This document shows positions 4,131 to 44,201 of a stretch of 64,000 nt of DNA, one piece after another (within the stretch, counting starts at the first letter, position 1; the number at the start of each line of letters is the position of its first letter). The translations under genes and the position numbers were made by a program. The notes under the pieces are model-generated. The model worked only from the letters and a program-made list of their open reading frames with translations, had not been told where the DNA came from and did no database searches. The DNA lies in contig JAGCDE010000045.1 of NCBI GenBank assembly GCA_017651315.1, positions 1-64,000 of the forward strand, read 5' to 3'. Origin of the DNA: Bacteroidaceae bacterium. GTDB taxonomy: Bacteria; Bacteroidota; Bacteroidia; Bacteroidales; Bacteroidaceae.

Positions 4131-4160
4131 TTTCTGCAATTCAAGTTTTTGTTACTTTAG
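4131..4160 (+). promoter_or_regulatory. probable promoter of the DUF234-type ATPase gene
   Basis: TTTC (4131-4134) and TACTTTAG (4153-4160) are each one mismatch from the -33 and -7 Bacteroidetes boxes, with an 18-base spacer. The next in-frame ATG is at 4183, which supports that start over an ATG at 4078 upstream of the promoter. Confidence 0.4.
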
Positions 4161-4182
4161 CAGAAAAATAAGCACATGTTTT

Positions 4183-5628: not shown

Positions 5629-5671
5629 GCAGCGAAGGTGTACATACCTTGTTTTTCAGACAATTGTTTGT

Positions 5672-10590: not shown

Positions 10591-10627
10591 TTCGGAATCC
10601 TGACTAAGTGGAACATATAACAGGATC

Positions 10628-11491
10628 TCAGTCCTTTATCTTCTCTACATCAGCAAGCATCCGCTCCACGTATGCGGGAAGAGCGAAACAGCCCTTATGC
10701 AGGTTAGTCGTATAATAATCAGTCTTGATACCAAGCCGGTTCCAGGCATCGGCATCAAGGTCAATCACCGGACGGAACTTTTTGGAAGCGAACCCGAAGA
10801 GCCAGTATCCAGAAGGGTACGAAGGTATGTGAGCCTGATAAACCCGGCTTATAGGGAAACTGTTCACGATACGCTTGTGCGCCTTTTGGGTCTCAATGCG
10901 GTCCTCCTCATAGAACGGGCTCTGATGCTGGTTCACCATGATTCCGTCGGATTTCAGGGCCTTGTAGCAGCTGCCGTAGAACTCACGGGTGAGAAGACTC
11001 TCTCCCGGACCGTAGAATCCTGCCGAGTCAACTATTATGAGGTCATACTCATTCTCTATATGGCGGATGAAACGCAGGGCGTTCTCGGTATAGATGGTCA
11101 CACGCGGATCATCGAGCGACTCAGCCATCTCCGGGAAATACTGGCGACAGGCCTGCACCACTCCCTCATTGATCTCGATAAGGTCAATGGTCTTGATGGA
11201 TTGGTATTTGAGCAGCTCGCGCACCACACCACCGTCGCCCGATCCGAAAACGAGGATGCGTTCAGCATTGGGATTTACGGCCATAGGCACGTGAGACAGC
11301 ATCTCGTCATATATGAACTCGTCACGCTGGGTGAATATGATGTAGCCGTCAACCGCAAGGAACCGGCCGAACTCGGGAGAATCGAAGATATCCACCCGGC
11401 CAAGGTCATTCTCACTGGAATAAAGGTGCTTGTCCACCTTTACCGAAAACTTTACATGGGGCGTATGAAGCTCAGTGAACCAGAATTCCAT
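10628..11491 (-). CDS. speE: spermidine synthase-like aminopropyltransferase, altered active-site motif
   Basis: From the ATG at 11491 the protein is 287 residues (MEFWFTELHTPHVKFSVKV); an upstream start would add 27 unlikely residues inside the previous gene's end. It has the N-terminal beta domain, the nucleotide loop LVFGSGDGGVVRELL (about 80-94), and the late YPSGYWLFGFASK. The usual catalytic motif D-x-x-D-P is here DSAGFYGPGESL: Asp155 is kept but the second Asp, which contacts the diamine, is Gly158 and the Pro is lost. No AdoMet decarboxylase gene (speD) is in the window. It may be active on another amine, be impaired, or serve another role beside the carboxyspermidine route. It lies between the decarboxylase and agmatinase genes, the speA-speE-speB order seen in Firmicutes. 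Confidence 0.85.
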   Translation of the reverse strand: MEFWFTELHTPHVKFSVKVDKHLYSSENDLGRVDIFDSPEFGRFLAVDGYIIFTQRDEFIYDEMLSHVPMAVNPNAERILVFGSGDGGVVRELLKYQSIKTIDLIEINEGVVQACRQYFPEMAESLDDPRVTIYTENALRFIRHIENEYDLIIVDSAGFYGPGESLLTREFYGSCYKALKSDGIMVNQHQSPFYEEDRIETQKAHKRIVNSFPISRVYQAHIPSYPSGYWLFGFASKKFRPVIDLDADAWNRLGIKTDYYTTNLHKGCFALPAYVERMLADVEKIKD

Positions 11492-28583: not shown

Positions 28584-28917
28584 CTTGTAATGAAACAGGT
28601 GGTACAGGGAATACTATCCATAGTTCTGAAAGATTAGCAAGCATTTAGTAAGGCTGGTACGAGAAAAGAAGCTTGGAGTAAGCTTGCTATTGTTTTGCAG
28701 ACAGTTCTTTAAAGTAGCCTAAAACTAAAAAAGGTTATAGACATACAACCTTTTCAGAACGAAGTAGATATCATCAAAACCACTATACCTCAAAGTCTGG
28801 CAAGAGCCGTAAAAATGTTGATAAAAAGAATCTGAAAACCATCTATTTCACGTTAATATTTGCTATCTTTACAATTGTCTATTAATTATCTATATTACAC
28901 AGTCATAAAGGAAAAGA
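28584..28917. promoter_or_regulatory. AT-rich upstream region of the defence island
   Basis: No gene is seen in these 334 bases. AAAAGGTT and AACCTTTT (28729-28736, 28747-28754) form an 8-bp stem. TATCTTTA (28864-28871), one base from TAnnTTTG, is the best promoter candidate for the operon starting at 28918. The change to AT-rich sequence begins here. I found no attachment-site duplication with the right boundary. Confidence 0.4.
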
Positions 28918-31900
28918 ATGCAAAACAGTTTTATCACTAATAAAGACAAGTTGCTATCAGATATCATAAAAGGAATCCTTCCAAAGAGCCAGTCTTTGGA
29001 TGTACTTGTTGGTTATTTCTATTTTTCCGGCTATAAACTGATCTCTGAGAAGTTGATAGACAAGCATGTCCGAATACTCGTCGGGCTTGATATAGACACA
29101 AATATCACGAAATATATCCGCGAAATAGACTCATTGGCAGAAAACAATAAATCACGCAGTCAGCTCAAAGATGACTATTATAATCATTTCGTACGTTTGT
29201 TCAATGAGACTGATTTACTTGACAGCCAACCAAAATTGGAATCTTTCAAACTGTTCTACGATAAGATAAAGGCTGGAACATTGGAAATCAGGAAGACTGA
29301 TGAGCCTTGTCATGCCAAGATGTATATCTTTGACTATCGAGACGAAATCAGCGAAGGAGGTGAAGATCCTGGCTCTGTTATCACGGGCTCCAGCAATCTT
29401 TCATACGAAGGATTGGCTGGCAGAGTGGAGATAAACGCCCGATTCAATGACAAGAATTCATATATTGACGCAAAGGCCATTTTCAACGAACTATGGGATA
29501 AGTCTATTGTCGTTGCAGATAAAGACCATATTGACGAGTTTGACACAAAGGTTATCGACCGTATCTGGTATGAGAAACTGTATAATCCTTATAAAATGTA
29601 CATTCGCGTGCTTAAGGAATACTTCTCCATACCCACAACAGAGAACCTGCTTACACCATACGACATTACTGACGGAAAGTTCTCCAATTTGAAATATCAG
29701 ACGGATGCAGTCCAAATGGCTATCAACGCCATTAAGAATCATAATGGCGTTATAGTAGCTGATGTAGTGGGACTTGGTAAAAGTATCATTGCATCAACTG
29801 TCGCCCGAAATCTTAGGCTGAGAACACTTGTTATATGTCCCCCACACTTGGAGGAACAATGGTGCACCTACCGTGACGATTTCGGCTTTACAGCTTCCAT
29901 CTATACTACAGGAAAGTTGGAGGAAGCATTAAGATATTACGAACGGATTGTTAAAGCCGATGAACAGTTTTTGATATTAGTCGACGAGGCACACCGCTAT
30001 CGTAATGAATATACTATTGACTATACTATTCTACACCAACTCTGTTCTGGCAATAAGGTTATGTTGCTGACAGCAACCCCTTTCAATAACAGACCAGATG
30101 ACATCTATGCTATGCTCAAGTTGTTCCAGATACCAACCAAGTCAACATTAAAGACTGTTGACAATCTGGGTGCAAAATTCAAAGACCTTATTGCCTCCTA
30201 TAAACAGATTCAGAAGGACCAGCGCGAAGGCAAGATAACAGTTGCCGATGTATCTAAGGAAGCGGGAAAGATTGCCGACGAAATTCGTTCTATAATCAGT
30301 CCACTTGTCATTCGTCGTTCCCGTATTGATTTGAAGGAAATACCAGAATATGCAGAAGACTTAAAACAGCAGAACATACAATTAGTCATCCCCAACGATC
30401 CCGTTGAGTTGGATTATGATTTGAGCAGTCTGAAAGACTTGTATCTTGAAACCCTCGATCGTATCAGTGAAGACGAACATCGAAAGAGAAGCGATGGCAA
30501 GTATCGTTTTAAGGCAGCCCGATACTCTCCACTTTTATATCTTAGAGAAGAATTAAAGCAGGAACTTTCAGATTTGTTGGAAGAAAAAACAGGCATTGAA
30601 CTGAACCTGTTATTTGGCCGACAGGCTAATGTCGCCATATTTATGCGTCGACTGTTAGTCCGTCGTTTTGAAAGCTCAGAATATGCTTTCCGTATGTCTC
30701 TGGAGTACATGATTAACAGTTCCAAGCAAATTCTGAAATGGATAGACAAAAAGAAGAAAATGCCAATCTACAAGAAGGGCAACCTTCCCGATGTTGACGA
30801 CTTCTACAAGACTGATGATGACGGAAACGAACTCATCACGGATACATACGAGAAGTATGAAAACCGAGGGTTCTTTGAGATTGACATGAAATATATCAAG
30901 GATTCCTTCGTAGAAGACATAAAGGCAGATATGTCACTCCTTCTTGAAATACAGAAGACGTGGTTTGGGAAAGACGGACATATCATGAACGATCCCAAAC
31001 TTGAGTCGTTCAAGAAAATCTTAACCAAGCAAATAACAAAGGATCCAAAACGCAAGATAATTGTATTTACAGAGTTTGCAGACACTGCCAATTATCTTGG
31101 AGAAGCATTGCGCACTTATGGACTTCCGGTTTTCAAATACACCTCGGCCGATGCTTCAAAAAGCAACAAAGACACTATCAATGCAAATTTTAATGCCGGA
31201 GAGAAAATTGAATATCAGTTAGATGATTATAAGATTATGGTTGCAACTGATGCCATCTCTGAAGGATATAACTTACATCGTGCCGGAACGGTAATCAACT
31301 ATGACATACCCTACAACCCCACTCGCATCATACAGCGTATTGGACGAATCAACCGTGTAAACAAGAAGGTATTTGACCAATTATATATTTACAATTACTT
31401 CCCCACTGACGTAGGTGAGACTGAAACACGTACCAAAGAGATATCAACCCTTAAAATGGCCATGATTCATGCCATAATGGGTGAAGACACCAAGGTGTTG
31501 ACCAAAGATGAAGAGATACAATCTTACTTTCTGGAACAATATCACAAGGAAATGGCCAAGAGTGAAGAGGTATCCTGGGATGTAAAATACCAAAAGATGC
31601 TCAATGCCGCTAAAGGAACCGAAATATATGATGAAGCCATGCAATTACCGCATCGCGCCCGCACCGGACGTTCGGTAGAAAAGCCGAGAAGCGGCGTACT
31701 CATGTTCGGTAAAAAAGGCAATGACTTTGTCTTTAAGATAGGAAATGATGAGGGCTTAGTATCACAACTGACTGCAGAAGAGGCCATAGGGCTGTTTGAG
31801 GCAGAAATATCAGAACAACCATCAGTACTATCAGAATCTTTTGAGCCGGCATATCAAGTGACAAAGTCTCATTTGTTCAGTTGTGATGTGCAGGACAAGA

Positions 31901-32172
31901 ATGAGAAAGCACGATTAGAAGCCATGCAGAAAGTAAAAGTTATGCTGAATCGCAAAGCCCTGCCTGCGGATTATCTTAAAGATCTGATGAAGGTGATTCA
32001 GAATGATGGTCTTTCTGGTTATGAGCTTCGCTTTATCAATCAGCTGAAGCCAGCAGATTACCACAAGCTGCCTGATCAGATAGACGAGTACTATATTAAC
32101 CGCATCATCGAAACTTGCAATCATGTGGATGATGGTGAGGAATCAATCATATTAGCGGAGGAATTAAAATGA
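28918..32172 (+). CDS. PLD nuclease-SNF2 helicase fusion, Hma-type defence helicase
   Basis: The 1084-residue protein has an N-terminal PLD domain with one HKD motif (HAKMYIFD, His132-Lys134-Asp139, then GSSNLSYEGLAG) and a superfamily 2 SNF2-like helicase. Motifs are DVVGLGKSIIAS (Walker A, about 280-291), ILVDEAHRYRNE (DEAH, about 354), LLTATPFNN, KIIVFTEFADTA, and VATDAISEGYNLH with RIIQRIGRINR. The combination suggests DNA translocation coupled to cleavage. It heads a co-oriented operon: its stop overlaps the ATPase gene by four bases, and a methyltransferase follows. Helicase-methylase-ATPase (Hma) systems have this gene content. The sequence is clearly AT-richer than the upstream core genes. 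Against other systems: no DUF1998 or PglZ partner is present. Confidence 0.88.
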   Translation: MQNSFITNKDKLLSDIIKGILPKSQSLDVLVGYFYFSGYKLISEKLIDKHVRILVGLDIDTNITKYIREIDSLAENNKSRSQLKDDYYNHFVRLFNETDLLDSQPKLESFKLFYDKIKAGTLEIRKTDEPCHAKMYIFDYRDEISEGGEDPGSVITGSSNLSYEGLAGRVEINARFNDKNSYIDAKAIFNELWDKSIVVADKDHIDEFDTKVIDRIWYEKLYNPYKMYIRVLKEYFSIPTTENLLTPYDITDGKFSNLKYQTDAVQMAINAIKNHNGVIVADVVGLGKSIIASTVARNLRLRTLVICPPHLEEQWCTYRDDFGFTASIYTTGKLEEALRYYERIVKADEQFLILVDEAHRYRNEYTIDYTILHQLCSGNKVMLLTATPFNNRPDDIYAMLKLFQIPTKSTLKTVDNLGAKFKDLIASYKQIQKDQREGKITVADVSKEAGKIADEIRSIISPLVIRRSRIDLKEIPEYAEDLKQQNIQLVIPNDPVELDYDLSSLKDLYLETLDRISEDEHRKRSDGKYRFKAARYSPLLYLREELKQELSDLLEEKTGIELNLLFGRQANVAIFMRRLLVRRFESSEYAFRMSLEYMINSSKQILKWIDKKKKMPIYKKGNLPDVDDFYKTDDDGNELITDTYEKYENRGFFEIDMKYIKDSFVEDIKADMSLLLEIQKTWFGKDGHIMNDPKLESFKKILTKQITKDPKRKIIVFTEFADTANYLGEALRTYGLPVFKYTSADASKSNKDTINANFNAGEKIEYQLDDYKIMVATDAISEGYNLHRAGTVINYDIPYNPTRIIQRIGRINRVNKKVFDQLYIYNYFPTDVGETETRTKEISTLKMAMIHAIMGEDTKVLTKDEEIQSYFLEQYHKEMAKSEEVSWDVKYQKMLNAAKGTEIYDEAMQLPHRARTGRSVEKPRSGVLMFGKKGNDFVFKIGNDEGLVSQLTAEEAIGLFEAEISEQPSVLSESFEPAYQVTKSHLFSCDVQDKNEKARLEAMQKVKVMLNRKALPADYLKDLMKVIQNDGLSGYELRFINQLKPADYHKLPDQIDEYYINRIIETCNHVDDGEESIILAEELK

Positions 32173-34076
32173 AAACAGCCCAAGAAATATTTGACCAGCT
32201 AAACTCAATTGACGAAAATGTCAGAATCGATGCAAAAAGAGCGTCAGAGATAGATAAAAGCATCATGGAAACAGTCTGTGCTTTTGCCAATGAGCCAGGC
32301 TTAGGTGGTGGCTACCTATTATTGGGTGCAGTCAGAACTGGTTTTGAGAATGGACTTCCCGTATATGTACCTGAAAACATTGAGAATCCTGACAAAATCC
32401 AGAATGACGTTACGACACAATGTAGCTCAATGTTCAATGTACGCATTCGTCCACAGATAGAAACTGAGGTTGTAAATGGAAATACTGTACTTGTTGTTAA
32501 GATAGATGAGGCTCCTGAAGCCCAGAAGCCTATTTATATCGTCAACCGTGGATTACCTCAGGGAGCTTTTCGCAGAGTTGGCTCTTCCGATCAAAAATGT
32601 ACGGAAGACGACATGAGAGTTTTCTATTCTTCAGCAGAGAGTTTTGACAGTACCACAGTAAAAGGAGCGACTCTCGATGATATCGATGAGAATGCGGTGG
32701 CTCATTATAGGAAACTACGTGCTAAGGTAAATCCCAATGCAGAGGAACTGTCGTATGATGACAAAGACCTGCTGATGGCTTTAAGAGCCTGCGAAAAAGA
32801 GAAAGACGGTAGCTACATCTTGACGTACACAGGCCTCGTCGTATTCGGTAAGTCCATGTCGCTTCGTCGTCTGCTACCTGCCTTAAGAGTAGATTACATT
32901 CGTGTATCAGGCAATAGGTGGATTGAAGATCCCGATAAGCGTTTCGAGGCAACCATTGATATGCGTGGACCACTTATCCTATTAGTCAACCGCGCTATTA
33001 ATGCTATTAAAGATGACTTGCCAAAAGGCTTTGAATTGAAAAAAGGCAGTTTGCAGGCAGACACCCCAATTGATTTACCTAATGATGCTCTCCGTGAGGC
33101 TTTGGTCAATGCCTTTATCCATTGCTCCTTCCGGCTTAATCAACCAATCCAGATTATCAGGTACTCTAATCGTTTAGAAATTATCAATCCTGGTTTCTCA
33201 TTAAAGTCACCCGAGACATTAGGTGAACCAGGATCCGTACAACGCAACCCATTTATCAGTACCATATTCCATGATACGAACTTAGCTGAGACCAAGGGCT
33301 CCGGAATCAGATCAATGAGAGGACACATGAAAAATGCAGGAATGATGCCACCTACTTTTGAATCTAATCGTTCTGCCAATCAGTTCACCGCCCGTTTGCT
33401 GTTACATCACTTATTGGATAACGAAACCATTCAGTGGCTTTCTTCTTATGCAGACTATTCACTAAATAATGAGCAAAGGTTGGCTCTGGTATTTGTACGT
33501 GAAGTCGGTGCAATAGACAACATCACCTATAGACAATTAAATAGCGACATAAATAATCAAAAAGCTTCTTTTGACTTACACAACCTATGCACCAAGGGAT
33601 TATTAAAGCAGAAAGGCCAAAGTAAAAACACATATTATATTGCAGGAGAAAGGTTCGTTAATAATAGAGCTAACGGAGAAAATAGTAATGCTATCCAAGA
33701 AAATAGTAATGCTATCCAAGAAAATAATAATGCTATCCAAGAAAATAGTAATGCTATCCAAGAAAATAGTAATGCTATCCAAGAAAATAGTAATGCTATC
33801 AGAGAAAATAGTAATGCCTTGCCTGCAGATTTATTGGAAAGATGTAAGAACCTAAAAAAATGGGAATCCTCTGAAAAAATGAAGAGTTTGATAGTTGAGT
33901 TGTGTACATTTACCCCATTAAGCGTCAATGATATTGCAATCATTATCAACAGAAAACCCTCTTCGGTCAGATACTTATATACCAATCCGCTTGTTGAGGA
34001 TGGTAAGCTTTTCTACACCATTCCAGAGATGGTGAAACATCCTGACCAGAAATACACAACCGTCAAAAATAAGTAA
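32169..34076 (+). CDS. AlbA_2/GHKL-type ATPase-like protein with heptad repeat linker
   Basis: The 635-residue protein begins with an AlbA_2 (formerly divergent AAA) domain: FANEPGLGGGYLLLGAV, then PIYIVNRGLPQGAFRRVGSSD. It continues with an ATP-binding region of the HATPase_c_4 type: LREALVNAFIHCSF, RLEIINPGFS, RNPFISTIF and ETKGSGIRSM. About residues 504-550 are six and a half copies of ENSNAIQ, encoded by a 21-bp tandem repeat. A winged-helix-like C-terminal domain follows (VNDIAIIINRKPSSVRYLYTN). The start overlaps the helicase stop by four bases and the methyltransferase follows after five, so the three products are made together. It is probably the ATPase member of an Hma-type system, perhaps a sensor or regulator. 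Confidence 0.82.
   Translation: MKTAQEIFDQLNSIDENVRIDAKRASEIDKSIMETVCAFANEPGLGGGYLLLGAVRTGFENGLPVYVPENIENPDKIQNDVTTQCSSMFNVRIRPQIETEVVNGNTVLVVKIDEAPEAQKPIYIVNRGLPQGAFRRVGSSDQKCTEDDMRVFYSSAESFDSTTVKGATLDDIDENAVAHYRKLRAKVNPNAEELSYDDKDLLMALRACEKEKDGSYILTYTGLVVFGKSMSLRRLLPALRVDYIRVSGNRWIEDPDKRFEATIDMRGPLILLVNRAINAIKDDLPKGFELKKGSLQADTPIDLPNDALREALVNAFIHCSFRLNQPIQIIRYSNRLEIINPGFSLKSPETLGEPGSVQRNPFISTIFHDTNLAETKGSGIRSMRGHMKNAGMMPPTFESNRSANQFTARLLLHHLLDNETIQWLSSYADYSLNNEQRLALVFVREVGAIDNITYRQLNSDINNQKASFDLHNLCTKGLLKQKGQSKNTYYIAGERFVNNRANGENSNAIQENSNAIQENNNAIQENSNAIQENSNAIQENSNAIRENSNALPADLLERCKNLKKWESSEKMKSLIVELCTFTPLSVNDIAIIINRKPSSVRYLYTNPLVEDGKLFYTIPEMVKHPDQKYTTVKNK
33678..33818 (+). repeat. 21-bp tandem repeat inside the ATPase gene, about 6.7 copies
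   Basis: Units start at 33678, 33699, 33720, 33741, 33762, 33783 and 33804. Copies 1, 2, 4 and 5 are identical (GAAAATAGTAATGCTATCCA plus A); copy 3 has one change, and copies 6 and 7 diverge at their ends. Each unit keeps the reading frame and encodes ENSNAIQ, so copy number can change without a frameshift. Confidence 0.95.
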
Positions 34077-34081
34077 GGACT

Positions 34082-37000
34082 ATGGAGTTTAACAGAGCAT
34101 ATAACCGTGATGAGTTCCTCTCATTTCTGAGAGTCAACTTTCTGCCAGAAGATTTCCGTCAGGAAATAAGCAGTGTGGAGAATCCCGTGCAGTTCCAATA
34201 TACCCAACAAGTGACACGTTTGGGTGAATGCGAATCATTGGGATTGGTGGTCTATGAAGTGCGCCATAGTTCAAAGCACGATGCCCGAGTAGGTCTGACA
34301 AAAGAGGCATTCCGTCTATTGGCTGATGAATTCTGTGACCGTGCCTTGGTGTTCTTTGTGCCAGAGGATGACAACAACAATTACCGTTTCTCACTGATAG
34401 AAATAACACTAGACCAGTCAGAGAGTTCTTCACGTGTCAGCCGCCGTTACTCCAACCCTCACCGCTATTCCTATTATTTAGGCAAGGGCATTGCTTACTA
34501 CACTCCCAACAAATATCTTAATGAATATGGCCGAGTGGTCAGTGTGGAGGATTTGCGTAACCGCTTCTCTGTAGAGGTGCTGACAAAAGCATTCTATCAG
34601 GAACTCAGCGACTGGTATGCCTGGTCAATTACTAGAGTACATTTTCCAAATGATCTGAAAACGTTAGAAGACAATCAGAAGTACAACTCCGAGGCTATGA
34701 TACGCCTGATTACTCGGCTCATCTTTGTATGGTTCTTAAAACAGCGGCATTTAGTACCTGATGAGTTCTTCGATGAGCAGTATATCAGCAATCATCTACT
34801 GAAGAACTTTACCCCCAACGCTAAAGTCACACTCTTTGGAAAAGCCGACAACAGCTATTACTACAAAGGAATTCTACAGAACCTTTTCTTCGCCATGCTG
34901 AACAGTCCTATTACTCCAGAGGGCAAGGACACTATCACTGAACGTCGTTTTCGCAATGGACGTAGCGATTATGACAACAATAAGCTTATGCGTCACGAAG
35001 AATTGTTTATTAACCCCGATTTGTTTGTGCAATTGGCAAACCAATATGTTCCTTTTCTCAATGGAGGTCTATTTGATTGTCTTGACGATAAAGATAAGGG
35101 CATCTACATTGATGCATTTACTGATCGTGATACCATTGCCAAACAATTAATGGTTCCCGATTATATCTTTTTTGGAGAGGAGGCTGGTAAGAATATAGAT
35201 CTTTCAGAGTATTATGGTGACAAGAAGAAAAAGAAGGTCAGCGCACGGGGTATAATCGACATTCTAAAGCGCTACAACTTTACGGTAGAAGAGAATACTC
35301 CTTTCGATCAAGAAGTATCACTCGACCCAGAGCTGTTGGGCAAAGTGTTTGAGAACCTACTGGCAGCATACAATCCAGAGACACAGACAACCGCCCGCAA
35401 ACAGACAGGTTCGTTCTATACCCCTCGTGAAATCGTACAATACATGGTGGACGAGAGTCTAGTAGCTCATCTTAAACGAACTGTTGGTGACGAACTGGAG
35501 TCCGAGTATAGAAAACTTATTCAATACACAGATGAAGAATTGAATCTGACTGATGTCCAAAAACGTCAGATAATGCAATCTATCTATGAGTGCAAAGTAC
35601 TCGATCCGGCATGTGGATCTGGAGCATTCCCCATGGGTATGCTCCAGCAGATGGTTCATATTCTAGGGAAACTAGACCCCAACAACGAGCAATGGAAAGA
35701 CATGATGCTCAATAATGCTATCAGCGAGACCTCCGAAGCATATCACAACGCCACGGATGAAGAGCGTGCAGAGATTGTAGCTGACATTAAACGTAGCTTT
35801 AATGAGAGCATCAATCGTCCAGATTATGCCCGCAAACTCTATCTGATAGAAAACTGTATCTATGGCGTGGATATCCAGCCCATTGCTATCCAAATCAGCA
35901 AACTCCGTTTCTTTATCTCCTTGGTAGTTGACCAGAAAACCAACAACAATCCGGTTGATAACTTCGGTATCCGTCCATTGCCGAATCTCGAGGCAAAGTT
36001 TGTAGCGGCTAATACATTAATAGGCATTGACAAGAAAGCACCAGATCTATTTACTTTAAATGCTGTTATCCAAAAAGAAAAAGAAATGAAAGATGCTAAG
36101 CATCGTATTTTCGGAGCAAAGACTGTTAAAACAAAAAGAAAATATAAAGAGCGTGTCACAGAATTGAGAGATGAACTTGCTAAGATGCTTGAAGATATTT
36201 GTGCTGTTGGAAATGAAGAATCAAAGCAACTGGCTTCATGGGATATGTTCGACCAAAATACATCATCATCTTTTTATGATTCAGAATGGATGTTTAACAT
36301 AAATGACGGGTTCGACATTGTCATTGCAAATCCGCCGTATGGTGTATTATTCTCTGAAAAAGAAAAGCAATACTTTTTAGATAATTATAAACATCAAGAC
36401 TATCAGCCTGAAAGTTATCTTATTTTTATCGAAAAGGGTATTGCTCTTACAAAAAGAAATGGCGTCCTTTCATATATAATTCCTAATACATGGCTTTTAA
36501 ATTTGACAACAAAGAAGATTCGAAAGCACATCTTTGAGTCAACGTCTCTTATTGGAATTGTACATTTTAAAGATTATGTTTTCAATGCTATTGTTGATAC
36601 AGAAATCATTTCTTTAATAAAGCAGATTCCTGTTAATAGAATGATAAAGTTGGATATCAAGTCATACAAAGGCGATCTGATTGAATCATCCACAGTCGAT
36701 CAAAATGATTTGATGAATAAAAATGGAGATGCTGTTTCCCTATTTATAAAGGATGAGTATTTATCTTTGATTAACAAATTGTCATTATTCCCATGTTTAG
36801 ATAGCTTCTGTAAAATAACTCAAGGTACTAAACCTTTTCAAGCAGGAAAAGGGGTTCCCAAACAAACAAAAGAAGATGTTAAGCAGAAAGCATTTGTATC
36901 AAAAGTACCAAAAAAAGGTTTCCGTCCTCTTTTACGAGGCAGTTTGATGAATCGATATAAAATCCTATGGAATAATAATTATTGGATAAAGTATGGGGAA

Positions 37001-37477
37001 TGGCTGGCAGAGCCAAGGCCTTCTGCAAGTTACGATGCACCAGAAAAGATCGTAATAAGACAAACGGGAGATTCCTTAATTGCCACCCTTGATTGCAATC
37101 AATTTGTGGTTAGAGATAATCTTTACACATGTATAGGTAAGTCTCCAAGTGTTATGTTATCTGCTATCTTAGGATTAATAAACTCAAAGTTGCTTAATTG
37201 GTACTATCAGAAAGTGCTAAATCCTGAGGAAGGAGAAGCATTAGCACAAGTGAAAAAAGGACATCTAACTCAATTACCCATTGCAGCAGAACAAGAGGAT
37301 GAATTGTATTCGCTTGTTCAAAAAAGATTGGATGTTTTAATCGAGCAAGAATACATAGACTCATTGGAAAATGAGATTGACAAAAAAGTCTATCACTTAT
37401 ATGGTCTGACCTATGATGAAGTCCTCATTGTAGACCCAGAGACTCCTATCACACGAGAAGAGTATGATTTAAGATAA
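34082..37477 (+). CDS. Eco57I-type N6-adenine DNA methyltransferase
   Basis: The 1131-residue enzyme has an N-terminal region of unknown fold (residues 1-420), then the gamma-class methylase core with motif I VLDPACGSGAFPMGML (about 505-520), a long insertion, and motif IV IVIANPPYGVLF (NPPY, about 747-758), which marks N6-adenine methylation. A target-recognition-like C-terminal half (about 840-1080) includes AGKGVPKQTKED, GFRPLLRGSLMNRYKI and GLINSKLLNWYYQ, as in BREX PglX and type IIL enzymes. No PD-(D/E)xK nuclease motif is apparent in the N-terminus, so cleavage, if any, would come from the PLD-helicase partner. It starts five bases after the ATPase gene. Confidence 0.88.
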   Translation: MEFNRAYNRDEFLSFLRVNFLPEDFRQEISSVENPVQFQYTQQVTRLGECESLGLVVYEVRHSSKHDARVGLTKEAFRLLADEFCDRALVFFVPEDDNNNYRFSLIEITLDQSESSSRVSRRYSNPHRYSYYLGKGIAYYTPNKYLNEYGRVVSVEDLRNRFSVEVLTKAFYQELSDWYAWSITRVHFPNDLKTLEDNQKYNSEAMIRLITRLIFVWFLKQRHLVPDEFFDEQYISNHLLKNFTPNAKVTLFGKADNSYYYKGILQNLFFAMLNSPITPEGKDTITERRFRNGRSDYDNNKLMRHEELFINPDLFVQLANQYVPFLNGGLFDCLDDKDKGIYIDAFTDRDTIAKQLMVPDYIFFGEEAGKNIDLSEYYGDKKKKKVSARGIIDILKRYNFTVEENTPFDQEVSLDPELLGKVFENLLAAYNPETQTTARKQTGSFYTPREIVQYMVDESLVAHLKRTVGDELESEYRKLIQYTDEELNLTDVQKRQIMQSIYECKVLDPACGSGAFPMGMLQQMVHILGKLDPNNEQWKDMMLNNAISETSEAYHNATDEERAEIVADIKRSFNESINRPDYARKLYLIENCIYGVDIQPIAIQISKLRFFISLVVDQKTNNNPVDNFGIRPLPNLEAKFVAANTLIGIDKKAPDLFTLNAVIQKEKEMKDAKHRIFGAKTVKTKRKYKERVTELRDELAKMLEDICAVGNEESKQLASWDMFDQNTSSSFYDSEWMFNINDGFDIVIANPPYGVLFSEKEKQYFLDNYKHQDYQPESYLIFIEKGIALTKRNGVLSYIIPNTWLLNLTTKKIRKHIFESTSLIGIVHFKDYVFNAIVDTEIISLIKQIPVNRMIKLDIKSYKGDLIESSTVDQNDLMNKNGDAVSLFIKDEYLSLINKLSLFPCLDSFCKITQGTKPFQAGKGVPKQTKEDVKQKAFVSKVPKKGFRPLLRGSLMNRYKILWNNNYWIKYGEWLAEPRPSASYDAPEKIVIRQTGDSLIATLDCNQFVVRDNLYTCIGKSPSVMLSAILGLINSKLLNWYYQKVLNPEEGEALAQVKKGHLTQLPIAAEQEDELYSLVQKRLDVLIEQEYIDSLENEIDKKVYHLYGLTYDEVLIVDPETPITREEYDLR

Positions 37478-37489: not shown

Positions 37490-37843
37490 ATGGAAAGTAA
37501 CGAAATAAATAGAAGAGTTAGCAAAGGAGAATCTTTCATCCTAGCAAACGATGGACAATTTCTTGGTAAATTGTGCTTAAACATCTATGACTCCGAGTCC
37601 ATATTAAATAATTATGGGGTATATGGAAGTCCTTACTCGGCATTCTCAATTAATAATAGATATTCAATGTATGGGAGCCAGTATTCATCATTAAGTCCTT
37701 TTAATCCATATACTATCACTCCTCCTACAATTTACTTGAGAGGAGTTAAAATTGGATTTCTTTCTGTGAACCAATACTTACATGGAAGCATAAGCCCTTT
37801 ACATATTAAAGAATGGATGAGATTTCATGAGTTATATAATTGA
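37490..37843 (+). CDS. small beta-rich protein, possible '4-fold beta flower' family
   Basis: A 117-residue protein with internal quasi-repeats rich in Tyr, Gly and Ser: NNYGVYGSPYSAFSINNRYS, then MYGSQYSSLSPFNPY, then TPPTIYLRG. This spacing resembles proteins named '4-fold beta flower' in Bacteroidetes annotation, which I recall but cannot check. There is no signal peptide. It starts 12 bases after the methyltransferase and its stop is two bases before the next gene's ATG, so it belongs to the same operon. A role as a small partner or ligand-binding subunit is possible; no function can be assigned. Confidence 0.65.
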   Translation: MESNEINRRVSKGESFILANDGQFLGKLCLNIYDSESILNNYGVYGSPYSAFSINNRYSMYGSQYSSLSPFNPYTITPPTIYLRGVKIGFLSVNQYLHGSISPLHIKEWMRFHELYN

Positions 37844-37845
37844 TT

Positions 37846-38481
37846 ATGGAGATGATAGAATATATAAAACTTGTTACAGCATTTGTTGTATCTATAGGCG
37901 GAGCTAGTGTTGTCATTGTTGCACTTGCTAAATGGTTTGGTGATTTTTTATCTCATCGATTACTTGATTCCTATAACAATAAGCATGAGAAAGAATTGGA
38001 GGAATTAAAAGGCAAGTATGCAAACGAGTTGGAAGAGACAAAAAATGAATTAGAAAAAGCGAAATTGCAATTTGTTAGATACTCAGAGAAGCAATTTGAG
38101 TTATACAATGACTTATGGAAAGTCCTATTGTACACAAAACAACAAGCAGATATGCTTTGGCAAAGAGCAGATCCTTCACAGATACCTGCTTTTAGTGAAC
38201 AAATTAGGCTTACTAGAAGAGCTATTGATGACAATTTGTTATTAATTGAGGATGAGCATTACAATAAGCTTGTTCAATTAATTGGACAATTTGAACAATT
38301 TCAATTTGGCAAACAAAAACTCATTGATATCAGAACACAAATGGAAAGTGGAGATGATATTCAATTGATTACTAAAGATGAGGCTCAAAGTACAATTCGG
38401 AGAAACAAGAAGACCAAAGACAAATATGATGAGTTAATCATGGATATAGGAAAATCATTTAGAAATCAGATAAAAGGATAG
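37846..38481 (+). CDS. membrane-anchored coiled-coil protein of the island
   Basis: From the ATG at 37846 the protein is 211 residues. One transmembrane helix lies at about residues 6-26 (LVTAFVVSIGGASVVIVALA). A strongly charged coiled coil follows (about 45-80, KELEELKGKYANELEETKNE and beyond), then a helical domain with LYTKQQADMLWQRADPS and IDDNLLLIEDEHYNKL. The layout suggests an inner-membrane protein with a cytoplasmic helical body. The family is unknown to me, although similar proteins occur in Bacteroidetes accessory regions. It sits two bases after the previous gene and 14 before the next. It could tether the complex to the membrane or be an effector; this is inference. Confidence 0.7.
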   Translation: MEMIEYIKLVTAFVVSIGGASVVIVALAKWFGDFLSHRLLDSYNNKHEKELEELKGKYANELEETKNELEKAKLQFVRYSEKQFELYNDLWKVLLYTKQQADMLWQRADPSQIPAFSEQIRLTRRAIDDNLLLIEDEHYNKLVQLIGQFEQFQFGKQKLIDIRTQMESGDDIQLITKDEAQSTIRRNKKTKDKYDELIMDIGKSFRNQIKG

Positions 38482-38495
38482 GAGCCTAAAGGAAT

Positions 38496-39458
38496 ATGAA
38501 ACTACAAATATGTGCCGAAATAGAAGGAAACTTCCTACTGAAGGATAGAGTGGATGCAAAGCTATATCCTTACGAATTTTCTATTTATTCTAAAGAAGAG
38601 AAACGTTACATTTGCGTTACAAAACCAGTTAAGGATTATTCAGAGTTCGCACCTAAAATGTATAATAAAGAAGGTACACTTCATATAGAGGCTACAAAGT
38701 CCGAAATATATAAGGACATGGAAGATTGGCTTAACTATATCGAAGCAATGGGGGCTTTCAATTTTGAGGTGTCAAAAATACATATTGACGAACTAGAGGT
38801 TATTTGGATTTACGAAACTGAAGAAGAGAAAGGCACAATACCTATTACTTCTTTAAAAAGAAATAAGCAGAAAAGAGAGACCGAAAAATATGTGTCAAAC
38901 AATAACCTGTCAAATCTCGTTATATTTAGAAAGATGCTTCCAGAAGCACATATTCCCTTCTCATATTATAGACAAGCAAAAACCTTTTTTGATGATGATA
39001 ATTACTATTTTGCTTTCATAAACTATTTTATGATGTTGGAGTTTTGTTTTGCAGATGGTAAATTTCAGAAAAAAGATGTCATATGCAATTTCATACAATC
39101 TAATCTTTTGAAATTGTGCGTTCTTACAGCATTTTCGATGATTAAGGCAAATGACAATGGTGGAAACTACACATGGTTATTATCTGAATGCAAATCAAGA
39201 CAGAAAAAAGTAAGTTTTGAGGCTATTGTCTATATCCTCGTAGAATATAGAGGAGTACTGTCACATGCATCTAAGCGTTCTAAAGTTTATCTATTTGACA
39301 ATTTCAAGTTAAGGCCACTTGCATTTACAATAAGTATGATATGTTTCTTGTTATGCGGTTACATGCAGGTATATTGTTGTTCAAGTGAAGAAAGTAAAAA
39401 CAGAATGATGTTAGAGCGTATAGAGGAACTTAATATAGAACTTGGATGGAATGAGTAG
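38496..39458 (+). CDS. hypothetical protein with HEPN-like C-terminal half
   Basis: The 320-residue protein has a beta-rich N-terminal half (residues 1-135) and a helical C-terminal half. The latter contains YYFAFINYFMMLEFCFADG (about 170-188) and, after a further helix, LVEYRGVLSHASKRSK (about 249-263). The R252-x4-H257 spacing is that of HEPN ribonucleases (R-x4-6-H), and the preceding aromatic helix also fits a HEPN bundle. The ApeA-like arrangement of a beta domain followed by a HEPN domain is similar in outline. The match is by motif and layout only. It lies in the island operon 14 bases after the coiled-coil gene; a 101-base gap with small repeats follows. Confidence 0.6.
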   Translation: MKLQICAEIEGNFLLKDRVDAKLYPYEFSIYSKEEKRYICVTKPVKDYSEFAPKMYNKEGTLHIEATKSEIYKDMEDWLNYIEAMGAFNFEVSKIHIDELEVIWIYETEEEKGTIPITSLKRNKQKRETEKYVSNNNLSNLVIFRKMLPEAHIPFSYYRQAKTFFDDDNYYFAFINYFMMLEFCFADGKFQKKDVICNFIQSNLLKLCVLTAFSMIKANDNGGNYTWLLSECKSRQKKVSFEAIVYILVEYRGVLSHASKRSKVYLFDNFKLRPLAFTISMICFLLCGYMQVYCCSSEESKNRMMLERIEELNIELGWNE

Positions 39459-39559
39459 GATCAACCTTCAAGATTGGTTAACTCTTCAGAGTTAGTGGAG
39501 AACTTATACATTTAGTGGGTAACTCAAAATGTAATCACAAAAAAGAAATAAAATAGATA
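39459..39559 (+). promoter_or_regulatory. 101-base gap before the STAND gene, small repeats
   Basis: It contains AACTC-TTCA-GAGTT (39479-39492) and two similar segments TTAGTGGAGAACT and TTAGTGGGTAACT. This is the widest gap within the island, so the STAND gene may have its own control. No clear TAnnTTTG is present. Confidence 0.35.
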
Positions 39560-42500
39560 ATGGCAGAAGAAACAAATTTCATTCCCAGGAAAGTTACAAA
39601 TCCAAACGACTGTCTGGATAGGAAGTCTTATTTATGTATCTGTGGCCTTTTTTGCGATTCAAGAGCAATTACCGACGAAATCAAATATCATGACAAGACA
39701 TCAAATATTGATGGATTTGTTCAGTTGATAGATGAAAACGACTATCCCATCGGGAATATATTTATTCAAGCCAAGACATATAAGTCGAAATACAAAGGAC
39801 AGAACAAGGCAGAAATTCCTGCTTATTTTGTAGCTTATGCCATGAGGATGCGTAATGAAGTTTGTATTTTCTTTTCTGTTGATGCAGATGATAATAAGAT
39901 TTATTGGAAATACATTTCTGATGACTATATAAGACAATTTAATAATGAGGGAGATAATGAAATCCATACATATGAATTCTATGATGATGAAATAGTAACG
40001 AGCAAGAACGTTGCTACAACGATTGACCGCTGGAAACAAATCTTTAATGATAAGATCGCGCAGCTAACAAAGGAGGAAAAGAGTACGGAGGAGGTAATGA
40101 CAGAAAGCTGTTCTGCATTTCAACGAATCAATACCTATTTTCATGATTTGAAGGATTCATTTGTAGAAAGGAAGGAGATAGATATACTTTGCAAATGGGT
40201 CAAAGAGGAACTACAGGAAAAGGAGTCTTGTGTGAAATTGCTCGTTGGGAATGCCGGGATGGGGAAAAGCGTTATAATAAAAAAGGTAATTCAAAGATTG
40301 AATGCTGACGGCATTAGATGTTTCGCAATTAAAGCAGATAAACTTCAAACTCCTGTTGGATATTCAAGTAATGAACATCTGGAATTACTAAGAAATACTT
40401 TTTCCAGCTTGATTCAAGAAAAGAGAGCAGTGCTAATTATCGATCAGATTGATGCATTGTCGCAATACATAAATAGCGACAGAAGCAAATTAGAAAATAT
40501 CACAGCCCTAATTAGACTCTTTTCTGATGACAAGAATATGAGAAATGTGAGGATTATTGTCTCTTGCCGTTCCTTTGACTTGGATTTTGACCCTAAACTA
40601 AGTTTGTTAGGACGTGAGCCTCAAATAAAACTTGGGCTGTTATCGAAGGAAGATGTGGAAAAGGTTCTTGATAGATTGGAAGAAGGTCTTTATAGAGAAC
40701 TGGATGATAAAACCAAAACTGTACTTCAAACACCCCAGCACTTGAATCTGTTTTGCCGAGTATATGCAAAGAACAAGAAAAAGGAGTATTATTCTATCAC
40801 AGAATTGTATGATGAATTGTGGCTACAGACAATCGGATTGGCAGAAGCAAAAATCAATAAAGAGATTGCAGAAAAGATTCTCTATGACTTGGCACTTAAA
40901 ATCTATGATGACGAAACGTTAACACCTCAATGGGATTATGATACGTCAGAATTGAAAGAAGCGAATTTTCTGATTAGTGAAGGTATTATTGAGCGAAATG
41001 AGAATAGGGCAACGTTCTTCCATCAGAGTATGTATGACTATGTCTTTGCCCGATATTACAAAAAAGAGAAACGCTCGTTGATTCAAGATTTGCTGGAAAA
41101 GAAAAAGCACCAGGGAATATTTATGCGCTCAACTGTGAATTTTGTCTTGGATTATGAAAGAGCAAAAAATGCGAAACAATACAAGGAGGACGTTAATAAT
41201 ATCTTGTTTTCCGGCAAAATCAGGACTCATATTCAACTTATGCTTTTGTGGGCAATGGCAAACAGGGTGGACATACTGCCGTTTGAGAAGAAATGTATCA
41301 AAGAGTTGTATGTACAGAATAGATTGCTGTTCTTTTCATTTATTAAGCGGACATATAATAAAGAATGGTATCAGATAATTACGCCACTCATTGCTAAGGA
41401 GATTAAGACGATGAGAATCGGAGATATTATCTATGAGAATGTTTATGGATATTTTTGGAATCACGTTCAGACGAGTACGGAAGATGTATTCAAGTTGGTT
41501 GATAGCATAAAGGATGAAAAGACAAGAAATGCTATTGCCAGAAATATTCTGCGTGCAACTCCTGATTACACTCTCAGTATTGTTACGAAGTGGTACAAGG
41601 TCTTATGTGACACCCTCTATAATAAAGCGGACTTCCTAGAAAGAGCACTTCCAACTAATCCTCAATTCGTGCTTGATAATATCTCTGAATTAATATCTTA
41701 TTATATTAAAAATGAGAAAGTAAATGAAACAGCAAGAAGATTTATAGAAGAAGTATGTAACACTTTTGTAAAAGATTATCCTGATGATATATATCCTATT
41801 TTAAGGGATGTGATATTGGATACAATTAATTCTTGTAGAGTAAAATCTTTAAACGGTATTATTGATTATAACAATGCATTTCTTTCCTTTAATCATCGTT
41901 ATTCAGATACTATCCACGAATGGTTTATCGGTATACTTAAGAACAAGATAATAACTGATTTAAGCACTGCAATTCGCGATATAAAACTACTTATAGAACA
42001 AAATGAAAGCAGTTGTTACGAATATGCTTTTGATGCCATGATTGAGAATCCAATTCTGTTCTCGGACGACATCATGGCTATTCTCAAAAATTATAAACTT
42101 TTGGATGAGATATTGATATACGGTGATAAGTCGTACTATTTTCTTGAACTTTTAAAGAAATGGTTTACGCAGGTTGCGAGTAATACTTTAGAGGAGTGCC
42201 AAGAACTAATTTGCAATTTTGAATCTAATTCTGGATCTATTTCAAAAAAAGACAGTTCATCAGCAGGCTCACTTCTCCCATATTTAGGATATAATCAAAG
42301 AAAATTAATATGGGCCATACCAGAAAAAAACAGAAACAGTCAAATTAAACGTTTAAAACTGGAGTTAGATCGAAGGTTCGGCAAAGAATGGAATAATGAA
42401 AAACCTGATCATGACATTACTGCCGCCTCTATTTGTGGAGGCTTAATGTCTACAGAACAATACAAAACGGTATCATTTGAAACATGGAAGAAATCATTTT

Positions 42501-43846
42501 ATGGCATTAAATATTATGCTAATGGCAAACATCGATTCTTCGATGAGAATGTTCATGCAGATGCATTCAAACAATGTGTAAGTGAGCGGTCTGAATATTA
42601 TAGCGACTTCGTTTTCAATTTATTTGATGACGAACGTATTCCAGATAAATATAAGATGGCTGGCTTAGAAGGATTGACCATTGCTGATTATTCCACTAAA
42701 CAAACACTTCCATTATTATGGAGACTCATAGATTCATTCGAAAATTTGTCAAATGAAGGTAGAGGATATAGGCTCTTTGAAATAATCAACCGTTTTACAA
42801 GTAAGGAAGGTGAACATATAGATAGTATTATTGAATTCTTGAAAAAAGTTATATTATCTGAGCATGAATCAAAATATGACCTTGCCATTGAAAATAATTA
42901 TGATGAATCGGCCATAAATACAACTTTGCAATATGGTATAAATAGTATTCCTGGTCATGCCATAGTATCTCTTTCACTTATTGGAAAACAAGATAAAAAA
43001 AGGGATATGGTGTACCAATTCTTTTTGGATTCGTGTAACAAACTATCTGTGGAACTACAGTTAGCTGCTATGTTCAATTTGAGAAGAGAGTGTTATGACT
43101 TCAATCTCTATTCTACAATCATGTTTGCGTATGCTAACAGACCAATAGCAGATTATTTATATCTTAATTCTGAAATTATGCATTGGTTTTGGTGTAATGA
43201 TCCAGAAAGAATCCTTCCATACTTTAAAATGATTCTGCCCAATAAAAGAGCAAGAATAATCTTGGTTCAAATCTTATTTTTTGGAATGGAATATGAAAAA
43301 ACCAATGATATTTCTAAAGAAATGTTTGAATATATTATTTCGCAAAATGAAACTGAGATATTAAGAAAAATAATACCTTTAGCATATAAGAATATTGATG
43401 ATGATACATATGGACAACAAAGCGAAATAATACTTAGAAGATTTGCAAATGACAATCGAGATGAGATTAGACAAACTTATTTTATATATGGTAATAGATT
43501 GCCTAACACACAGATAAATCTTTTTAAAGAATTATTGGAATCATGGATTAAACTACCATTGGATTATGGATTTCATGATATTATTCATTACATAAAAAGG
43601 TGTTGCAATGATTATCCAGATGAATGCTATCAATGTGTAAAACTACTTTTGAATTGCAAAGGCGATAAGACCTATTATGATGAAGAAGAACTGATAAAAA
43701 TACTTCTTTCATGCTATCGTTCATATTTGGATTATGGTGAAGATAAAAAAGCAGATGAAGTTATGGATGTTTTTGACAGTATGATGCTTTCTTCATATTC
43801 AAACAAAATGGACAAGATTCTAAAAAGAATAGAAGAAAACACATAA
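39560..43846 (+). CDS. nuclease-STAND NTPase, Avs-like defence protein
   Basis: The 1428-residue protein begins with a PD-(D/E)xK-like domain related to DUF4365: NIDGFVQLID (Asp51) and GNIFIQAKTYKSK (Gln70-x-Lys72). Next is a P-loop NTPase of the STAND class with Walker A LVGNAGMGKSVIIKK (about 227-241), Walker B AVLIIDQIDAL (about 289-299), and the sensor strand RIIVSCRSFDLD. A winged-helix-like part follows, and about 900 residues of helical repeats form the C-terminus. An N-terminal nuclease, central ATPase and long C-terminal sensor is the plan of Avs and other NLR-like phage sensors. The ligand cannot be predicted. It is the last gene of the island, has the most AT-rich sequence, and ends just before base composition returns to normal. 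Confidence 0.8.
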   Translation: MAEETNFIPRKVTNPNDCLDRKSYLCICGLFCDSRAITDEIKYHDKTSNIDGFVQLIDENDYPIGNIFIQAKTYKSKYKGQNKAEIPAYFVAYAMRMRNEVCIFFSVDADDNKIYWKYISDDYIRQFNNEGDNEIHTYEFYDDEIVTSKNVATTIDRWKQIFNDKIAQLTKEEKSTEEVMTESCSAFQRINTYFHDLKDSFVERKEIDILCKWVKEELQEKESCVKLLVGNAGMGKSVIIKKVIQRLNADGIRCFAIKADKLQTPVGYSSNEHLELLRNTFSSLIQEKRAVLIIDQIDALSQYINSDRSKLENITALIRLFSDDKNMRNVRIIVSCRSFDLDFDPKLSLLGREPQIKLGLLSKEDVEKVLDRLEEGLYRELDDKTKTVLQTPQHLNLFCRVYAKNKKKEYYSITELYDELWLQTIGLAEAKINKEIAEKILYDLALKIYDDETLTPQWDYDTSELKEANFLISEGIIERNENRATFFHQSMYDYVFARYYKKEKRSLIQDLLEKKKHQGIFMRSTVNFVLDYERAKNAKQYKEDVNNILFSGKIRTHIQLMLLWAMANRVDILPFEKKCIKELYVQNRLLFFSFIKRTYNKEWYQIITPLIAKEIKTMRIGDIIYENVYGYFWNHVQTSTEDVFKLVDSIKDEKTRNAIARNILRATPDYTLSIVTKWYKVLCDTLYNKADFLERALPTNPQFVLDNISELISYYIKNEKVNETARRFIEEVCNTFVKDYPDDIYPILRDVILDTINSCRVKSLNGIIDYNNAFLSFNHRYSDTIHEWFIGILKNKIITDLSTAIRDIKLLIEQNESSCYEYAFDAMIENPILFSDDIMAILKNYKLLDEILIYGDKSYYFLELLKKWFTQVASNTLEECQELICNFESNSGSISKKDSSSAGSLLPYLGYNQRKLIWAIPEKNRNSQIKRLKLELDRRFGKEWNNEKPDHDITAASICGGLMSTEQYKTVSFETWKKSFYGIKYYANGKHRFFDENVHADAFKQCVSERSEYYSDFVFNLFDDERIPDKYKMAGLEGLTIADYSTKQTLPLLWRLIDSFENLSNEGRGYRLFEIINRFTSKEGEHIDSIIEFLKKVILSEHESKYDLAIENNYDESAINTTLQYGINSIPGHAIVSLSLIGKQDKKRDMVYQFFLDSCNKLSVELQLAAMFNLRRECYDFNLYSTIMFAYANRPIADYLYLNSEIMHWFWCNDPERILPYFKMILPNKRARIILVQILFFGMEYEKTNDISKEMFEYIISQNETEILRKIIPLAYKNIDDDTYGQQSEIILRRFANDNRDEIRQTYFIYGNRLPNTQINLFKELLESWIKLPLDYGFHDIIHYIKRCCNDYPDECYQCVKLLLNCKGDKTYYDEEELIKILLSCYRSYLDYGEDKKADEVMDVFDSMMLSSYSNKMDKILKRIEENT

Positions 43847-43892: not shown

Positions 43893-44201
43893 ATGTCACT
43901 CCCCAAATTCATAATAACCAGAGCCGGAGTCCTGCGCTTAGGGATGGTACGTCAGCACAAGGACTTGCTGCTGCCGGAGGATGATTGCATCGGAGGCGGG
44001 TATTATCAGTTTGACTTTACCTGTAACCGCATGATTCTGGATCGGGCATCGTATGACTTTGGAATTCCGCGGTGGCATCTTATTGATACGCTTAAGGTTC
44101 CGGCGGTTTATCGCGGACTGCGCATCGTCTATAAATATGATGATGATTTACATGATGACCTTCAAGTGAACGAAGAACTTAAAATTGAATATTACGAATA
44201 A
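43893..44201 (+). CDS. hypothetical protein
   Basis: I do not recognise this 102-residue protein (MSLPKFIITRAGVLRLGMVR...). It is soluble, acidic at the C-terminus (YKYDDDLHDDLQVNEELKIEYYE), and probably a small alpha/beta fold. Its base composition is like the downstream core genes rather than the island, so the island's right edge lies between 43846 and here. It is 11 bases before the Dabb-family gene and shares its direction, so they may be co-transcribed. Confidence 0.6.
   Translation: MSLPKFIITRAGVLRLGMVRQHKDLLLPEDDCIGGGYYQFDFTCNRMILDRASYDFGIPRWHLIDTLKVPAVYRGLRIVYKYDDDLHDDLQVNEELKIEYYE

What the first reader, a model, noticed from the sequence alone, without database searches (positions are those of the whole stretch)
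37490..43846. Four extra genes appended to the Hma-like core form a larger, possibly undescribed island
Directly after the methyltransferase, in the same direction and mostly with gaps of 2-14 bases, come a small beta-rich protein, a membrane-anchored coiled-coil protein, a HEPN-like protein and a nuclease-STAND ATPase. The first three are packed like operon partners rather than independent cargo. A core that modifies and cuts DNA plus a membrane component and a predicted RNase would be a layered system with restriction first and cell-suicide effectors second.
Basis: inference. Interest (0 to 1): 0.8.

Follow-up and report, generated by a model that had tools for sequence, protein, structure and literature searches.

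The report
Swappable effector cassette behind restriction genes
A bacterium of the Bacteroides group carries a DNA-restriction-like system with three extra genes, one a likely RNA-cutting suicide enzyme, plugged in directly behind it; relatives carry the same system with different genes in the same spot, so this looks like a socket for exchangeable backup weapons rather than one fixed larger system.

Summary
The core is not Hma: no DUF499 match in the genome. It is an HKD-SNF2 helicase (A) and a type IIG-like methyltransferase (C), with an AlbA_2 gene (B) between.

The trio is no one-off. Another Bacteroidales locus (L063) has A-C-d-e-f in that order (68/75/72% identity for d/e/f); a third (L064) has A-C-f. 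Nor is it fixed. At the same site in a sister species, A-B-C (90/86/68%) is followed by five other genes. Breakpoints fall at gene ends, between a conserved C tail and a recurrent gene, F4. Of 37 readable loci, 25 have a tightly coupled gene behind C (22-23 without specificity pieces), of unrelated kinds; but 0 of the 33 found through C carry f.

Best reading: an exchangeable effector slot on an RM-like core; d-e-f is one cassette, f perhaps a PrrC-like guard. HEPN genes beside RM systems are known, so this is a new variant. g looks like separate cargo.

The parts
28918..32172 (+). A: HKD (phospholipase D-like) nuclease domain fused to SNF2-type helicase, 1084 aa
   Evidence: Pfam PLDc_2 7e-11, SNF2-rel_dom 5e-13, Helicase_C 1.4e-18; HKD H132-K134..GSSN and Walker A present
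32169..34076 (+). B: AlbA_2 (Schlafen-type) domain + HATPase_c_4, 635 aa; such a gene sits between A and C in 3 of 55 A-C loci
   Evidence: Pfam SLFN_AlbA_2 1.3e-14, HATPase_c_4 2e-16
33677..33817 (+). 21-bp tandem repeat (6.7 copies) encoding a 7-residue repeat linker inside B; differs in the copies of L099 and L157
34082..37477 (+). C: type IIG-like N6-adenine methyltransferase with TaqI_C specificity domain, 1131 aa
   Evidence: Pfam Eco57I 4.5e-33, TaqI_C 1.6e-21; NPPY at residue 750
37362..37467 (+). conserved C tail (ends 10 bp before the end of C), left border of the exchange slot
   Evidence: 92% DNA identity to the sister locus while the preceding specificity region has no DNA match
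37490..37843 (+). d: small beta-rich protein, 4-fold beta flower type, 117 aa
   Evidence: 68% identity to L063; plasmid relative annotated '4-fold beta flower protein'
37846..38481 (+). e: N-terminal membrane segment + coiled coil, 211-213 aa
   Evidence: 75% identity to L063; hydropathy 2.47
38496..39458 (+). f: HEPN-like protein, beta-rich N-terminal part and all-helical C-terminal part with Rx4H, 320 aa
   Evidence: Rx4H invariant in 8 of 8; AlphaFold2 model with strands between 2 and 105 and helices 135-316, mean pLDDT 70.6, pTM 0.54
39560..43846 (+). g: STAND-type ATPase, 1428 aa; judged separate cargo in the same slot
   Evidence: AAA 4.7e-11; not seen on the fetched stretches of the other 7 f loci; 1 N-terminal partial match (residues 7-161, E 6.9e-16) in 120 other family genomes
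43893..44201 (+). h: host flank gene, right border of the replaced block
   Evidence: 91% identical beyond the slot in sister species G551; DNA match resumes at 43890

Best explanation
A-(B)-C is a restriction-modification-like core: C methylates and recognises DNA, and A translocates and cuts with its HKD domain (inferred from families). Behind C is an exchange slot, bordered on the left by the conserved ~35-codon C tail and on the right by gene F4 or host flank, into which effector cassettes are swapped. d-e-f is one such cassette, packed like part of the core operon. Most likely mechanism: f is an RNase toxin held inactive while the core is intact, or by d/e at the membrane, and released when a phage inhibits or overloads the core, in the way PrrC guards EcoprrI. 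Shown: domains, gene order, recurrence, breakpoints, replacement at one site. Inferred: co-transcription, RNase activity, gating by the core, the roles of d and e.
For: Second A-C-d-e-f locus, L063, and A-C-f, L064. Same-site replacement in sister species G551: DNA homology 28909-36340 and 37362-37467, then none until 43890. In G410, from another family of the same order, A-B-C at 91/83/67% carries yet another slot. Breakpoints at gene ends: L063 v L064 match to 10 bp before the end of L063's C (22 bp in L064) and resume exactly at f; L063 v L038 resume at F4's first base, L099 v L157 7 bp before F4. 25 of 37 readable loci have a same-strand gene of 80 aa or more within 50 nt of C's end (23 without L040_3 and L056_11, 22 if L169_1 is also a specificity piece, as it looks by eye), against 10 of 48 upstream of A. 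On the tree of C's N-terminal part the two d-e-f loci fall in different supported clades, each with other slot contents. Other slot genes with HEPN-type motifs by eye: L158, L192, L165, L166. Precedent: PrrC/RloC and at least 16 HEPN clades linked to RM systems (PMC3710099, passages).
Against: f has no Pfam HEPN hit. Its model is of moderate quality (pTM 0.54) and fold searches gave nothing at E<=0.001, so 'HEPN' rests on motif and helix content. The bare pattern R.{4,6}H is not specific: it occurs in 11 of 17 slot or neighbour proteins printed. L063 and L064 were found through f: of the 33 readable loci found through C alone, 0 carry f. f lies away from an A-C pair in 5 of 8 places, one beside a phage portal gene. 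The upstream-of-A control is not a like-for-like operon end. The backbone of the tree is unresolved, so gain cannot be told from loss. No expression or phage data. The promoter scan found no consensus site before d, but none before A either, so it has no force.
Confidence: 0.6

Rival explanations
1. Passive hitch-hiking: defence islands are recombination hot spots, and d-e-f happens to sit behind C without functional coupling to the core.
For: f also occurs beside a type I RM operon (L005/L068), near DprA-like and RT genes (L006/L069), with AlbA and F4 genes (L065, L066) and next to a phage portal gene (L067). 0 of the 300 other family genomes have e. 0 of 33 readable loci found through C carry f. 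At least one tight slot gene looks like a transposase by eye (L170_7).
Against: Same order d-e-f behind the same core in two core clades; start/stop overlaps with C in several loci; downstream coupling 22-25 of 37 v 10 of 48 upstream; breakpoints at gene ends.
Confidence: 0.25
2. d-e-f is a self-contained abortive-infection or toxin-antitoxin-like module (f toxin, d/e control or membrane anchor) that only borrows the core's promoter.
For: d-e is present or absent as one piece between C and f (L063 v L064); among the loci seen, d and e lie together only in the window and L063; f keeps its Rx4H in every context.
Against: L064, L065 and L067 have f without d or e on the fetched stretch, so d/e cannot be an obligatory neighbouring antitoxin; neither d nor e matched a known antitoxin family.
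Confidence: 0.2
3. One reading: one fixed seven-gene layered system A-B-C-d-e-f-g.
For: All on one strand; low GC throughout.
Against: g not seen at the other 7 f loci; L063 has A and C directly adjacent and L064 has its AlbA gene before A; the slot is replaced at the orthologous site.
Confidence: 0.05

Closest known systems
EcoprrI-PrrC (type Ic RM with anticodon nuclease guard)
   Same: RM genes with an adjacent HEPN-type RNase gene; backup-suicide logic (PMC3710099 passages)
   Different: Core is an HKD-SNF2 helicase plus a single-chain IIG-like methyltransferase, not HsdRMS; no ABC ATPase domain was found in f; d and e have no counterpart in the passages read
RM-linked HEPN families (Anantharaman et al. 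2013, PMC3710099)
   Same: At least 16 HEPN clades linked to RM operons are described there
   Different: f matched no Pfam or NCBIfam HEPN family; that paper's family alignments could not be tested here. An exchange slot with fixed borders is not in the passages I read
Hma / DUF499-centred BREX-related systems (PMC8565338 passages; PMC12839542 passages and section 28)
   Same: Helicase plus methyltransferase; Type-2 BR helicases also carry N-terminal HKD; Schlafen and HEPN backup effectors are reported
   Different: No DUF499 match in the genome; B is AlbA_2-HATPase
DISARM class 1 (DrmD, DrmMI)
   Same: DrmD-like SNF2 helicase (163 bits in NCBIfam)
   Different: Far below the DrmD cut-off of 610; no DrmB or DrmC in the PADLOC lists shown for the window's proteins (A's and C's lists were cut at 25 of 42 and 25 of 57)
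PADLOC C3a139 'HKD+Snf2'
   Same: Same HKD+SNF2 domain order over residues 4-862 of A (134 bits; 227 bits for relative L163)
   Different: Only a profile name in the library; its system definition was not seen here

Membership tests
Hma | DUF499 ATPase (HmaC) | tested here: not met
   0 of 1 genome (83% complete); same search found it in 1 of 14 named control genomes
Hma | HmaA-type helicase as best match | tested here: not met
   83.5 bits, below DrmD 134.5 and C3a139 134.0
Type IIG-like RM core with HKD-SNF2 helicase | Eco57I-type N6 methyltransferase motifs with TaqI-type specificity domain | tested here: met
   NPP[YFW] in 43 of 44 and DPxxGSG in 44 of 44 C proteins over 1000 aa
Type IIG-like RM core with HKD-SNF2 helicase | HKD motif and Walker A in A | tested here: met
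   both in 52 of 52 A proteins over 1000 aa; DE[AC]H in only 35 of 52
Type IIG-like RM core with HKD-SNF2 helicase | methylation-dependent DNA cleavage | not testable with these tools
   needs biochemistry
HEPN superfamily (f) | Rx4-6H motif in an all-helical domain | tested here: met
   invariant in 8 of 8 rows; helices 135-316; the bare pattern alone is not specific
HEPN superfamily (f) | profile or fold match to a known HEPN | tested here: inconclusive
   no Pfam HEPN hit; best PDB profile hit E 0.063, Octarellin V.1; no Foldseek hit at E<=0.001; model pTM 0.54
PrrC-type guard | RNase silenced by, and activated on inhibition of, the RM core | not testable with these tools
   needs expression and phage assays
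4-fold beta flower protein (d) | homology to proteins so named | tested here: met
   44.8% identity over 82%, E 9e-19, to one plasmid protein so annotated, of 15 records with a match; Pfam scan empty

The most novel reading that the evidence does not exclude
This RM family has a true effector socket: the conserved C-terminal tail of the methyltransferase, kept while the neighbouring specificity domain turns over, is the docking (or recombination) element, so unrelated candidate suicide effectors (HEPN-like proteins of several families, TIR, RhuM, and by weaker evidence PIN and SIR2-like) are plug-compatible with one restriction core and are exchanged independently of DNA specificity.
Probability: 0.18. 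Interest if true: 0.68.

Novelty: new variant of a known kind. Interest (0 to 1): 0.52.

Why it matters
Guard toxins tied to restriction systems are known case by case (PrrC). Here closely related cores, one pair at the same chromosomal site, carry different candidate effectors between fixed borders. That gives natural swaps with which to test whether a restriction core controls whatever effector is plugged in behind it. It also supplies new candidates: the f family, the e coiled-coil family, the 388-aa family and F4.

Tried and rejected

Considered and rejected: Hma membership; g as a trio member; a trio tied to the DNA specificity of C (window and L063 share d-e-f but are 17-26% identical over residues 801-1100 of C; against that, L063 and L064 share f at 83% and are 81% identical after residue 850). 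By eye only: 'SIR2-like' for L157_5 (Pfam gave no SIR2 hit), 'TcmP-like' for L099_9 (Pfam gave GMT-wHTH), 'serine recombinase' for F6, 'transposase' for L170_7. The 388-aa family (L099, L193) as HEPN is unproven: its conserved H lies in YNxVKHxR without the Rx4H spacing.

Controls and bias: 64 loci entered the survey: the window; 26 loci from 24 of the 127 other family genomes with a C match (one search lists many partial or other methyltransferases; best scores were taken, G083 was left out); 34 from 34 of the 35 other order genomes (G365 left out); L063 and L064 (found through f); L099 (found through the flank). 9 dropped out because no A passed the threshold (L045, L048, L049, L162, L171, L178, L181, L187, L196), leaving 55; 37 had a readable 3' side. 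ORFs and starts were called mechanically.

Full report
Observation. The four genes exist at the stated places, on one strand, directly behind the methyltransferase gene C. The gaps are 12, 2 (or -4, depending on the start of e) and 14 nt for d, e and f, and 101 nt before g. Composition splits the region: flanks 52-53% GC, A/B/C N-part 40-41%, the specificity part of C 34%, d/e/f 32%, g 33%. The genome belongs to the same family as two genomes whose contigs match, by length and hit, Bacteroides cutis and Phocaeicola faecalis records.

The core. A is an HKD nuclease domain fused to an SNF2 helicase. B is AlbA_2 plus HATPase_c_4. C is an Eco57I-type N6 methyltransferase with a TaqI_C specificity domain. 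It is not Hma: Hma is defined by helicase, methyltransferase and an ATPase (PMC8565338 passages), the last being DUF499 (PMC12839542 passages and section 28), and no DUF499 match is found in the window's genome, which is 83% complete (0 of 1). A scores higher with DrmD and with PADLOC's 'HKD+Snf2' profile C3a139 than with HmaA. In the relatives collected here A and C are the constant pair: of 55 loci with both, 41 have no same-strand gene over 90 aa between them and 14 have one (AlbA 3, DUF1016 4, KilA-N 4, RhuM 1, other 2; named by similarity). All 52 A proteins over 1000 aa keep the HKD and Walker A patterns; DE[AC]H is found in 35 of 52.

The trio. d is related to a '4-fold beta flower' protein. 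e has an N-terminal hydrophobic segment and a coiled-coil-like stretch. f has a beta-rich N part and a helical C part with an Rx4H motif invariant in 8 of 8 relatives. The HEPN assignment is by motif and helix content; fold searches were empty at E<=0.001, the model is moderate (pTM 0.54), and the bare R.{4,6}H pattern is common (11 of 17 proteins printed).

How often do trio and core go together? In the same sample of 301 family genomes f occurs in 3, e in 1 and d in 4, own genome included. The two other f genes are not beside the core (20 kb read); for the three other d matches only 2-3 kb was read, without A or C. A pattern-based scan of 84,980 species genomes with an f profile gave 7 loci, two of them those same two. 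L063 reads A-C-d-e-f-F4, with d/e/f at 68/75/72% identity. L064 (Marseilla massiliensis) reads AlbA-A-C-f-F4. The other five have f elsewhere: two with AlbA and F4 genes (L065, L066; L065 also has a 503-aa HKD-SNF2 piece about 6 kb before f, but no C on the stretch), one beside a type I RM operon, one near DprA-like and reverse-transcriptase genes, one next to an SPP1-type portal gene. So f is with an A-C pair in 3 of 8 places, and d-e-f as a trio in 2 of 2. One more remote e (29% identity) lies elsewhere, in 1 of the 246 other order genomes. L063 and L064 were found through f and are not an unbiased sample: of the 33 readable loci found through C alone, none has f.

Exchange. In sister species G551 the same site, between the alcohol dehydrogenase gene and h, holds A-B-C at 90/86/68% identity, but behind C lie a 388-aa gene, a 99-aa gene, a 383-aa gene (TcmP-like by eye), a DUF5131 gene and F4 instead of d-e-f-g. 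DNA homology runs 28909-36340, stops in the specificity region of C, returns for 106 bp (37362-37467, ending 10 bp before the end of C), and then only at 43890. A strong A (90% or more) is present in 2 of the 37 genomes of the genus, both at this site. G410, of another family, has A-B-C at 91/83/67% and a 342-aa gene plus F4. Breakpoints fall at gene ends: L063 and L064 match to 10 bp (22 bp in L064) before the end of C and again from the first base of f, so d-e is present or absent as one piece; L063 v L038 match again from the first base of F4, and L099 v L157 from 7 bp before F4. On a tree of the C N-terminal part (22 rows, backbone unresolved, some long branches) the window groups with G551 and G410 (100/100), while L063 groups with L064 and L038 (97/92), then L158 (92/83) and L159 (100/99); each group has several slot contents. 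The slot has therefore changed more than once; gain and loss of the trio cannot be told apart.

The slot in general. Of 37 loci with a readable 3' side, 25 have a same-strand gene of at least 80 aa within 50 nt of the end of C. Two of these are pieces of C (L040_3, L056_11), and a third (L169_1) looks like one by eye, leaving 22-23. Upstream of A the figure is 10 of 48, though an operon's front is not a like-for-like control for its end. Contents are unrelated: f; proteins with C-terminal RNxxxH, L158_9 and L192_10; ABC-ATPase proteins with a C-terminal Rx6H (L165, L166) and a relative, L187, whose Pfam HEPN match is below cut-off (E 0.0065) and whose spacing is longer; the 388-aa family twice, in deeply different cores (L099, L193); RhuM twice; EVE twice; a weak PIN match once (below cut-off); and one transposase-like gene, L170_7, by eye. 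TIR and NERD genes follow in L158. L042, L159, L174, L191 and L195, among others, have no such tight gene.

Mechanism. HEPN RNases linked to RM operons, and the PrrC model in which the RM complex silences the RNase until a phage disables it, are established (PMC3710099, passages). PMC12839542 (passages) proposes a backup role for HEPN and Schlafen genes in BREX-type systems. By analogy f is most likely a guard or backup effector of the A-C core. d and e may anchor or tune it; since L064, L065 and L067 have f without them nearby, they are not an obligatory neighbouring antitoxin. None of this is shown by experiment.

g. The STAND gene is 101 nt further on, not seen on the fetched stretches of the other 7 f loci (L063's contig ends 0.45 kb after f), and has one N-terminal partial match (residues 7-161) among 120 other family genomes. 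I treat it as separate cargo.

Verdict. Paper searches near this combination (listings) gave only general papers; that is not proof that it is unpublished.

Noticed in passing
L045, L053, L054, L055, L056: Behind C lie opposite-strand gene pieces (in L045, L053, L054 and L056 matching C's specificity region) and a gene of 203-226 aa that looks like a serine recombinase (by eye), which suggests specificity switching by DNA inversion in this RM family.
   Followed up: partly
33677-33817: A 21-bp tandem repeat in B encodes a 7-residue repeat linker; the linker differs in length and sequence in L099 and L157.
   Followed up: partly
L038, L039, L053, L063, L064, L065, L066, L099, L157, L193: F4, a family of about 215 aa with a constant N-terminus and no Pfam match above cut-off in the four copies scanned (one truncated), sits at the right end of the slot in many loci and also without A-C.
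   Followed up: partly
L067 (Lachnospira MAG), 9992-10939: A 43% identical f homologue lies next to an SPP1-type phage portal gene.
   Followed up: no
L157 (G410, another family of the order): A-B-C 91/83/67% identical to the window across a family border, which points to recent horizontal transfer.
   Followed up: no
L163, L169, L174, L188; L041, L166, L175, L184: KilA-N-like or DUF1016-like genes sit between A and C, a second insertion place.
   Followed up: partly
L169 (5348-8617): A is split into two adjacent ORFs of 543 and 545 aa with a KilA-N-like gene before C; natural split or disrupted gene not resolved.
   Followed up: no
1-6000: The left end of the window is also lower in GC (40-44%) and may be another island.
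   Followed up: no
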